In this document: piece by piece, positions 4,121 to 61,800 of the stretch | Layout: each line of letters opens with the position of its first letter | How positions within the stretch are numbered: the stretch's first letter is position 1 | Assembly (NCBI RefSeq): GCF_001767395.1 | Contig: NZ_CP017014.1 | Coordinates: 992,001-1,056,000 of the forward strand | Source of the DNA: Rhodococcus sp. WMMA185 | Lineage (GTDB): Bacteria > Actinomycetota > Actinomycetes > Mycobacteriales > Mycobacteriaceae | DNA length: 64,000 nucleotides | Reading direction: 5' to 3' | Program-made: the position numbers and the translations under genes | The notes under the pieces: model-generated | Seen by the model: the letters and a program-made list of their open reading frames with translations, nothing else | What the model was told of the DNA's origin: nothing | The model's database searches: none

Positions 4121-5380
4121 GTGACCGCCAACTCTGACTCGACCCCGCGACCCACGCCACCTAGGGACCTGCCCTCTGGGCGGCCCGTCGTGACGATGAT
4201 CGGTGGTGGCCAGCTGGCGCGGATGACCCATCAGGCGGCCATCGCCCTCGGCCAGAGCCTGCGCGTGCTCTCGGGGACCGCGGACGAGCCCGCAGCGCAG
4301 GTGAGCCCCGACGTCGTACTCGGGACTCACACCGACCTCGACGCGCTCCGCAAGGCTGCGGTTGGTTCGCACGCGGTGACCTTCGACCACGAGCACGTGC
4401 CGACCGAGCACCTCGACGTCCTGATTGCCGAGGGAGCGAATGTGCAGCCCCCGCCGCAGGCGCTGATCTACGCGCAGGACAAGCTCGCAATGCGCCGAAA
4501 GCTGGGAGAACTCGGTGCTCCGATTCCTGCTTTCGCGGAGGTGACCTGGGTGGAGGATGTCGTGAAGTTCGGCGCCGAACACGGGTGGCCGGTGGTGATC
4601 AAGGCTGCACGAGGTGGATACGACGGTCGAGGCGTATGGATCACCGACGACGCCGACGAAGCCGAGCACATCGTTGCCGAGCAACTCGACAAGGGTGTCC
4701 CCCTCCTGGTGGAGGAGAAGGTCGAGATGCGGCGGGAACTGTCCGCGATGGTTGCCCGCTCGCCGTTCGGTCAAGGGGCCACCTGGCCGGTAGTGGAGAC
4801 GGTGCAGCGTAACGGGCAGTGCGCGGTGGTTCTCGCTCCCGCCCCTCAGCTGCCCGAGTCGGTGGCCGAAGCCGCAGAGGAACTCGCACTACGGATCGCA
4901 TTCGAACTCGGAGTGGTCGGCGCCATGGCCGTCGAGTTGTTCGAGACCGCCGACGGCGCTCTCGTCGTCAACGAACTCGCGATGCGCCCGCACAACTCCG
5001 GTCACTGGACGATGGACGGCGCTCGTACCTCGCAGTTCGAGCAACATCTGCGCGCGGTCCTGGACTATCCACTCGGAGACACCTCGCCGATCGCGCCGAT
5101 TACCGTGATGGCGAATGTTCTCGGAGCTCCCACCGCCCCCGCGATGAGCATGGACGAGCGTGTTCACCACCTCTTTGCCCGCATGCCCGACGCGAAGGTC
5201 CACCTGTACGGCAAGGGTGAGCGCAAGGATCGCAAGATCGGGCACGTGAACATCGTGGGCGGCGCCGGCTCGATCGATGACCCGGAGTACGTCGCGCGAG
5301 TGCGCGAGCGTGCCGAGCGTGCCGCGCGGTGGCTCTCGCACGCTGAATGGACCGACGGATGGGATGTGCACGGTGAGTGA
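4121..5380 (+). CDS. purK: N5-carboxyaminoimidazole ribonucleotide synthase (PurK)
   Basis: A 419-residue ATP-grasp enzyme that makes N5-CAIR from AIR, bicarbonate and ATP in purine synthesis. The N-terminal dinucleotide-like fold starts at [11 protein letters not shown]. The ATP-grasp core includes [15 protein letters not shown] and [17 protein letters not shown], and the substrate and metal site includes [19 protein letters not shown]. Length is slightly above the usual 380-400 because of an extra N-terminal 20 residues rich in Pro. The purE gene starts inside its last codons, so the two are translationally coupled. GTG 4121 is the start. Confidence 0.95.
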
Positions 5381-5907: not shown

Positions 5908-6288
5908 ATGAAACGCAACCGAGGTATTCGGTTGATCCGTGCGTCTCGGGGCAGTGCGCAGTCCGCGGCGATTACGCGCCTGGCGCTGGTGTATGCGCGG
6001 ATGTGGGGTGCCCGCATCACATTCGACGACGAGTTCGGCATCTTCGTGTGCAGCGGGATGTGCGGAGGCTATGCGCGTAGCGGAACGACGATCGGTGGTG
6101 CGTTTCTCACCGGCCGGGTGCCGGGGCGGTCGCTCGTGCGGCACGAAGCGGTCCATGCCGACCAGTGGGCCACTTACGGCGCGACCTTCGCGTTGCGGTA
6201 CCTGTTCGAGGAGTTTCGACACCCCGGTGCGCGCAACAGGTTCGAGATCGCAGCCGGACTTGCCGATGGCGGCTACCGCGCTAGCTGA
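5908..6288 (+). CDS. Small conserved protein with an HExxH motif
   Basis: A 126-residue basic protein beginning 16 bases after purE. The visible motif is RHEAVHADQWATYG (about residues 76-89): an HExxH zinc-binding signature followed by Gln three residues after the second His, resembling the HE-x-x-H-x-x-Q core of DUF4157-type minimal metalloproteases. A later Glu (FEIAAG, residue about 116) could be the third ligand. Related actinobacterial proteins are often labelled Fe-S oxidoreductase, but only two cysteines (CSGMC) are seen and no cluster motif. No signal peptide is visible. Function is not established. It overlaps the next gene tail to tail by 16 bases. Confidence 0.65.
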   Translation: MKRNRGIRLIRASRGSAQSAAITRLALVYARMWGARITFDDEFGIFVCSGMCGGYARSGTTIGGAFLTGRVPGRSLVRHEAVHADQWATYGATFALRYLFEEFRHPGARNRFEIAAGLADGGYRAS

Positions 6289-60426: not shown

Positions 60427-60690
60427 TCACATTCTGTAGTAACTGTGTGAACGATACCCGCGCGTAGGTAACTCATCACGGCGGACTCACAAGGTTCACA
60501 AGGTCCAGGGTATTGCCTGACCAGTAACTAGAGTGCCGTATCGATCGTTCGTGCCCGTTGATCTGGGTAGCCGAATCATTGCGAACCGGGTCGATGTGAC
60601 ACGCCGGGATGATCTGTCGATCGAGAGCTGGGTCGAGGAGGTGCCGAACTGTGAGACTCTGGTCGGGTGATTGACCGAGGAGGACCACCC

Positions 60691-61800
60691 GTGGGTGGCC
60701 GGGCTCCCGAGAATTTCGAGGATGAAGAGCGATCACGCCGTGTCGGCCAGCGTGATTCACGCAGCGTCGACCGGCGAAATACGCGCAGTGTCGACTACCG
60801 TGACGTCCGGACTCGCGCTTGGCCGGTGGCTGAGGAGCAGGCGCGTCAACCACTCCGCGCGCAATGGGATCCGACGAGGCGCGATCTCGGTAAACCCCGG
60901 AACCCTCGTCCGGTGCGGCATGTTCGGAAGCAGAGCCGGATCGGCAGGTTCGTCTCGATGTATGGCTGGCGGGCGTACGCGATTCCGATCCTGCTGATTG
61001 TCACCGTCCTCGTCGTGGTCGATGCGGTCCGGGGCGCTGGTACCGACGAGTCGCTGGGCGAGACCGGTACCCCGGGATTCGGCAACCTCTCACACGACGC
61101 GCAAGATTCTGCTGTCACCGACAGCCCGCCCAAGGCCGATGGCAGTTTCGCTGCCGACCTGCCGTCGGGTGCGCTACCCGCCGGCGGCCCCTTTACGGTC
61201 GAGGGTGCCGGTACGTGGCATATCGTCCCGGGAAGCGGGCCGAAGGTCGGCGAAGGTACCGAACAAGACTTCACGTACACAGTTGAGGTGGAGGACGGGA
61301 TCGACACCTCCGGGTTCGGTGGCGACGAGTCCTTCGGCCGGATGGTTGATCAGACACTGGCGAACCCGAAGAGTTGGACGAAGGATCCGCGTTTCGCGTT
61401 CCGTCGTGTCGACGAGGGCGACCCAGACTTTCGAATCTCGCTCACCTCGCAGATGACGGTACGCGAGGGGTGCGGATACGACATCGAACTCGAGGGCTCT
61501 TGTTACAACCCCAGCATGGGCCGAGTGCTGCTCAACGAGCCTCGCTGGGTGCGAGGTGCGATCGACTTCCAGGGCGACATCGGTTCCTACCGCCAGTATC
61601 AGATCAACCACGAGGTCGGTCACGCCATCGGCTACGAGGCTCACCAGCCGTGTGAAACAGAGAACGGGCTGGCACCGGTGATGATGCAGCAGACCTTCGG
61701 GACTTCGAACAACGACATCGCGGAACTAGATCCCGAAGGCGTCGTACCGATGAATGGTCTCACCTGTCGTTTCAACCCCTGGCCGTTCCCTCGCGGATAG
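60691..61800 (+). CDS. DUF3152 zincin-like protein
   Basis: A 369-residue protein with a basic cytoplasmic N-terminus, one membrane helix (about residue 95-115) and an extracytoplasmic DUF3152 domain (about 165-369). The active site reads HEVGHAIGYEAHQPC from His307: HExxHxxGxxxH, one residue longer than the metzincin HExxHxxGxxH. Four cysteines (GCGYDI, GSCYNP, QPCE, LTCRF) may form disulfides. GTG 60691 has GAGGAGG eight bases upstream, better than GTG 60667. Substrate unknown (Rv3207c position). Confidence 0.85.
   Translation: MGGRAPENFEDEERSRRVGQRDSRSVDRRNTRSVDYRDVRTRAWPVAEEQARQPLRAQWDPTRRDLGKPRNPRPVRHVRKQSRIGRFVSMYGWRAYAIPILLIVTVLVVVDAVRGAGTDESLGETGTPGFGNLSHDAQDSAVTDSPPKADGSFAADLPSGALPAGGPFTVEGAGTWHIVPGSGPKVGEGTEQDFTYTVEVEDGIDTSGFGGDESFGRMVDQTLANPKSWTKDPRFAFRRVDEGDPDFRISLTSQMTVREGCGYDIELEGSCYNPSMGRVLLNEPRWVRGAIDFQGDIGSYRQYQINHEVGHAIGYEAHQPCETENGLAPVMMQQTFGTSNNDIAELDPEGVVPMNGLTCRFNPWPFPRG

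What the first reader, a model, noticed from the sequence alone, without database searches (positions are those of the whole stretch)
5908..6288. Small HExxH protein after purKE
RHEAVHADQW is a clean zinc-protease signature in a 126-residue protein usually described without function. The HExxHxxQ pattern recalls DUF4157 domains that occur with toxins and self-cleaving proteins. A minimal protease encoded beside purine genes would be new.
Basis: partly seen in the sequence, partly recalled or inferred. Interest (0 to 1): 0.5.

Follow-up and report, generated by a model that had tools for sequence, protein, structure and literature searches.

The report
Small stand-alone DUF4157-like zinc peptidase
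A small conserved protein next to two purine genes is very probably a zinc-dependent protein cutter from a family best known as parts of bacterial toxins; here it stands alone as an ordinary chromosomal gene whose target is unknown.

Summary
The ORF is real: 5908-6288 (+), 126 aa, RHEAVHADQW at residues 78-87, under purifying selection. It is one member of a widespread actinobacterial family. In 68 non-redundant relatives, H79, E80, H83, Q86, a downstream Glu (E113) and A116 are invariant. This matches the "HExxHxxQ-E" signature published for the PVC-metallopeptidase/DUF4157 (Pfam eCIS_core) gluzincins. The predicted order of elements is helix, strands, HExxH helix, Glu helix. For a model of a close homologue, 6 of 7 listed structural matches are zinc metallopeptidases, including the VgrG2b DUF4157 effector domain, though all Z-scores are low. 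The window protein itself matches no Pfam model; the DUF4157 link runs through more distant relatives. The purine link looks incidental: purE is within the held flanks in 22 of 71 distinct loci, sometimes with an opposite-strand ORF between. Related domains form C-terminal tips of RHS proteins in other actinobacteria, but the window's genome has no RHS match and the gene is syntenic in its clade. Best read as a stand-alone, chromosomally fixed minimal gluzincin: a new member of a known kind (minimal gluzincins are already known). Zinc binding, activity and substrate are untested.

The parts
5908..6288 (+). Gene for a 126-aa stand-alone DUF4157-like (HExxHxxQ-E) putative zinc metallopeptidase
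   Evidence: dN below dS in 13 of 13 pairs
5956..6003 (+). Helix 17-32, mildly hydrophobic; probable backing helix of the zincin fold rather than a membrane span
   Evidence: AlphaFold model, block pLDDT 93-94; best 19-residue Kyte-Doolittle mean 0.80
6013..6108 (+). Strands 36-40, 45-49, 60-62 and 65-67 (the last two in the conserved GTTxGxxFLT stretch), the beta sheet before the active-site helix
   Evidence: G63 in 67 of 68
6127..6177 (+). Active-site helix 74-90 with H79-E80-x-x-H83-x-x-Q86-W87
   Evidence: H79, E80, H83, Q86 invariant in 68 of 68; helix in model, pLDDT about 88
6232..6285 (+). Segment RNRFEIAAGLADGGY with E113, the proposed third zinc ligand, on helix 109-115; low-confidence tail 117-126
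   Evidence: E113 and A116 invariant in 68 of 68; pLDDT only 40-62 here
4121..5380 (+). purK neighbour (context only)
   Evidence: TIGR01161
5277..5891 (+). purE neighbour; ORF as listed, the true start probably lies further in (context only)
   Evidence: TIGR01162
6273..7061 (-). Convergent TIGR03089 gene overlapping the 3' end; the more constant neighbour (30 of 71 loci)

Best explanation
The gene encodes a stand-alone, single-domain gluzincin (MA(E)-type zincin) of the DUF4157/PVC-metallopeptidase superfamily. H79, H83 and E113 would hold one zinc ion, E80 would activate the water, and the beta sheet would line the substrate cleft. It most likely cuts a cellular protein or peptide in the cytoplasm, since no hydrophobic stretch strong enough for a membrane span was seen. 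It is inherited vertically as part of the chromosome and is not part of purine synthesis. Shown: the family, the invariant residues, purifying selection, and the remote DUF4157 relation. Inferred: zinc binding, proteolysis, location and role.
For: Invariant HExxHxxQ...E..A in 68 of 68 members, including three rows (L088, L105, L106) whose profile match stopped before the Glu. The HExxHxxQ-E signature, three strands, His on the second helix and Glu on the third are the published PVC-metallopeptidase description (PMC3482391, passages). Predicted order helix-strands-HExxH helix-Glu helix in two models. VIA-align rows with Z of 2 or more for model 2: BepA, VgrG2b effector 6h56, IrrE, PprI and BlaR1 twice, 6 of 7 listed. 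PF13699 matches 18 of 68 members, best 1.7e-5. hhalign: close group to distant group 99.9% (E 2.6e-31), distant group to DUF4157 93% (E 2.6e-7, 78 columns reaching the Glu). dN well below dS. Best 19-mer hydropathy 0.80.
Against: The window protein alone hits no Pfam model up to E 10. Direct close-group to DUF4157 profile match is only 18 columns round the motif, probability 5%, score 23.8 against a maximum of 19.5 in 100 column shuffles and 17.2 reversed. No Foldseek match is significant and all VIA Z-scores are 3.6 or lower. The E113 region is modelled with low confidence, and no coordinates were available to measure ligand distances. PMC11297309 (passages) reports one DUF4157 protein whose growth inhibition did not depend on its metalloprotease motif, so the fold need not mean catalysis.
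Confidence: 0.75

Rival explanations
1. The fold is a zincin but the protein works as a zinc-binding scaffold, chaperone or adaptor rather than as a protease.
For: A chaperone or adaptor role is suggested for DUF4157 in eCIS systems, and one member's growth inhibition is independent of the motif (PMC11297309 passages). For VgrG2b no cleaved substrate was found (PMC6899460 passages).
Against: E80, the catalytic base and not a ligand, is invariant in 68 of 68. Mutating the catalytic site abolishes VgrG2b toxicity (passages).
Confidence: 0.15
2. It is a captured or orphan interbacterial toxin tip: an RHS-type C-terminal peptidase toxin now without its carrier.
For: Related domains sit at the C-terminus of RHS-type proteins (L083, L087, L127, L128). 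PVC-metallopeptidase domains as RHS toxin tips are described (PMC3482391 passages).
Against: No RHS core match in the own genome. Gene present in 12 of the 15 same-genus genomes shown, syntenic and under purifying selection. In the tree the stand-alone clade is separate from the RHS tips. No immunity-gene partner is apparent among the named neighbours.
Confidence: 0.06
3. It is a functional part of the purKE operon, for example processing PurE or PurK.
For: Only 16 bases separate the purE stop from the ATG in the window. purE is present in the flanks of 22 of 71 distinct loci.
Against: 36 of 71 loci have neither purE nor TIGR03089 in the flanks held and 13 have only TIGR03089 (most flanks are only 1.5 kb). 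In L003, L004 and L048 purE is 0.6-1.1 kb away with an opposite-strand ORF between. In L001, L002, L004 and L048 a TATCCT hexamer lies 6 bases before the start, suggesting an own leaderless promoter (sequences; reading by eye).
Confidence: 0.03

Closest known systems
DUF4157 / eCIS_core (PF13699), the PVC-metallopeptidase of Zhang et al. 2012 (PMC3482391)
   Same: HExxHxxQ-E signature, small alpha+beta zincin, T-x-G strand just before the HExxH helix, remote profile relation
   Different: Stand-alone 126 aa, below Pfam detection, W after the Q, C-terminal AGLxDGGY, no toxin or eCIS carrier, inherited with the chromosome
VgrG2b C-terminal effector domain (6h56, PMC6899460)
   Same: Ranks joint first in VIA-align for the homologue model (Z 3.6, 95 residues, rmsd 4.9 A); HExxH plus Glu ligand, classed as MA(E) gluzincin
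   Different: 179-residue chain, T6SS spike fusion with an immunity partner
Minigluzincins (selecase, abylysin)
   Same: About the same size, with an HExxH helix and a Glu helix (element order recalled, not from a call); selecase 4qhi appears among the weak Foldseek rows
   Different: No significant sequence or structure match
Tox-MPTase4 (PF15640)
   Same: 10 of 68 relatives hit it weakly, best E 0.0079
   Different: The window protein does not match it

Membership tests
DUF4157 / eCIS_core (PF13699) | Pfam model match of the protein itself | tested here: not met
   No family up to E 10
DUF4157 / eCIS_core (PF13699) | HExxHxxQ-E signature | tested here: met
   68 of 68 members, window included; signature from PMC3482391 passages
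DUF4157 / eCIS_core (PF13699) | Sequence relation at superfamily level | tested here: met
   18 of 68 members, best 1.7e-5; transitive profile link; the direct link is weak
DUF4157 / eCIS_core (PF13699) | Context of toxin, RHS, T6SS or eCIS genes | tested here: not met
   Neighbours GtrA, purK, purE, TIGR03089, LCP transferase; no RHS core in the genome; eCIS genes elsewhere in the genome not searched
MA(E) gluzincins | HExxH on one helix and a Glu ligand on a later helix, brought together | tested here: inconclusive
   Both on predicted helices, but the Glu helix has pLDDT about 50-60 and no coordinates were at hand
MA(E) gluzincins | Structural match to gluzincins | tested here: inconclusive
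   6 of 7 VIA rows are zinc metallopeptidases, Z 2.6-3.6; no significant Foldseek match
MA(E) gluzincins | Zinc binding and peptidase activity | not testable with these tools
   needs protein
Tox-MPTase4 (PF15640) | Pfam model match | tested here: not met
   Window protein no hit; 10 of 68 members weak only
Minigluzincins | Minimal gluzincin fold like selecase or abylysin | tested here: inconclusive
   4qhi in Foldseek list at E 9, TM 0.24

The most novel reading that the evidence does not exclude
A toxin-associated peptidase superfamily has a housekeeping branch: a chromosomally fixed, minimal, stand-alone DUF4157-like enzyme across much of Actinomycetota with an endogenous substrate, from which RHS toxin tips were drawn several times (or which was itself domesticated from them).
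Probability: 0.4. Interest if true: 0.5.

Novelty: new member of a known kind. Interest (0 to 1): 0.3.

Why it matters
DUF4157 is used as a marker of injected toxins and its role in eCIS is called elusive (PMC11297309 passages). A small, soluble-looking, non-toxin relative with all the presumed catalytic residues offers a simple object for testing whether this fold is a real protease, and what it cuts, without a delivery apparatus. It also suggests that the domain alone should not be read as a toxin marker.

Tried and rejected
Purine operon link: rejected on synteny. Orphan toxin: disfavoured. Membrane protease: the window protein's best 19-mer hydropathy is 0.80; some relatives reach 1.9-2.2, so it is open for them. 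Plasmid, phage and viral-contig relatives: none found. Anti-phage defence model: no match. PF15640 search of 148 class genomes found nothing, but its control also found nothing, so it shows no absence. Solved-structure sequence searches: one chance hit and designed repeat proteins only. NCBIfam weak hits to undecaprenyl-diphosphate phosphatase (E 0.065) judged chance. Papers: DUF4157 with Rhodococcus gave one paper, on annexins, seen only in the listing; purE, purK, Rhodococcus and metalloprotease together gave none. From memory, such proteins may be annotated "Fe-S oxidoreductase"; no call tested this.

Full report
Observation. The ORF at 5908-6288 (+) encodes 126 aa with RHEAVHADQW at residues 78-87. 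purK and purE lie upstream, and a TIGR03089 gene overlaps its 3' end on the other strand, followed by an LCP glycopolymer transferase. HExxH by itself is not rare: 7 in the window's long frames against 3.6 expected.

Family. Close relatives occur in Rhodococcus (67-85% identity) and in Microbacteriaceae (41-56% over the matched part), 17 loci in all. Single-protein search: 55 of 296 class genomes. Profile search: 69 of 201 family genomes, with 12 of the 15 same-genus genomes shown positive, and 66 of 396 phylum genomes. The genus is inferred from these relatives to be Rhodococcus. None were found in plasmids, phages or viral contigs. All 106 loci matched by the profile keep HExxHxxQ. After reduction at 80% identity, 68 remain; H79, E80, H83, Q86, E113 and A116 are invariant, and Y98 and G63 are in 67. 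Recruitment by a profile holding the motif favours this result; but in three rows (L088, L105, L106) the matched stretch ended before the Glu and it is still there. Codon comparison with 13 orthologues gives dN 0.09-0.38 and dS 0.41-1.40.

Relation to known families. The window protein has no Pfam match up to E 10. Of 68 members, 18 match eCIS_core/DUF4157 (best 1.7e-5) and 10 match Tox-MPTase4 (best 0.0079). I split the family by profile score into 37 close and 31 distant members and compared profiles with 13 DUF4157 segments: close to distant 99.9%, E 2.6e-31; distant to DUF4157 93%, E 2.6e-7 over 78 columns from the T-x-G strand to the Glu; close directly to DUF4157 only 18 columns at 5% (score 23.8; 100 column shuffles at most 19.5; reversed 17.2). 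So the link is transitive. Zhang et al. 2012 (PMC3482391, passages read) describe the PVC-metallopeptidase by HExxHxxQ-E, three strands, and three helices with His on the second and Glu on the third, which is the pattern here. Wood et al. 2019 (PMC6899460, passages) solved VgrG2b's domain and class it as an MA(E) gluzincin with a Glu ligand.

Structure. AlphaFold of the window protein: pLDDT 79.7, order H17-32, E36-40, E45-49, E60-62, E65-67, H74-90, H93-104, H109-115, with an extra N-terminal helix 2-12; the Glu helix and tail are low confidence. A homologue (L012) gives 85.6 and the same order from the second helix on. Foldseek finds nothing significant for either model. VIA-align on the Foldseek lists: 3c37, a putative Zn peptidase, first for the window model (Z 3.1; the other two rows are unrelated). 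For L012: BepA 3.6, VgrG2b 3.6, IrrE 3.0, BlaR1 2.9 and 2.6, PprI 2.8, and one viral entry 2.1. These Z-scores are low; the agreement in kind is the evidence.

Context. Of 71 distinct loci, 22 have purE in the held flank, 30 have TIGR03089, and 36 have neither (loci after L077 were not in this count). Flanks are up to 4 kb for 17 loci and about 1.5 kb for the rest, so absences are limited. In L003, L004 and L048 purE is 0.6-1.1 kb from the gene with an opposite-strand ORF between. In L001, L002, L004 and L048 TATCCT stands 6 bases before the start, as in leaderless actinobacterial promoters (recalled). The purine neighbourhood is therefore most likely positional.

RHS tips. Four long frames that I looked into (L083, L087, L127, L128) carry RHS-type sequence upstream of a C-terminal domain of this family; two of 68 members hit the RHS core model. 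L045 resembles L127 but is cut by a contig end. In a tree of 70 rows (121 columns, many weak forks) the Rhodococcus-type stand-alone proteins form one group (97/91), apart from the RHS tips, which lie at about three places, two of them on long branches. The window's genome has no RHS core match and no second family member below E 0.3.

Conclusion. A stand-alone, minimal, probably catalytic gluzincin related to DUF4157. It is a new member of a known kind; its substrate is unknown.

Noticed in passing
window 60667-61800 +: A second HExxH protein (HEVGHAIGYEAH): DUF3152, Pfam E 3.7e-98; the extended motif looks metzincin-like, which is my own reading.
   Followed up: partly
L083, L087, L127, L128: RHS-type proteins with a C-terminal domain of this family.
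   Followed up: partly
L043, L047 (same family), L046 (same class): Longer proteins of about 260-290 codons ending in HExxHxxQW...AGLxDGGY in other actinobacteria, without a Pfam match in the one tested (L043); delivery and role unknown.
   Followed up: partly
L001, L002, L004, L048, just before the gene start: TATCCT exactly 6 bases before the start codon, kept even where purE is not adjacent: a possible leaderless promoter.
   Followed up: no
L048:896-1408 -: An opposite-strand ORF between purE and the peptidase gene in some Rhodococcus.
   Followed up: no
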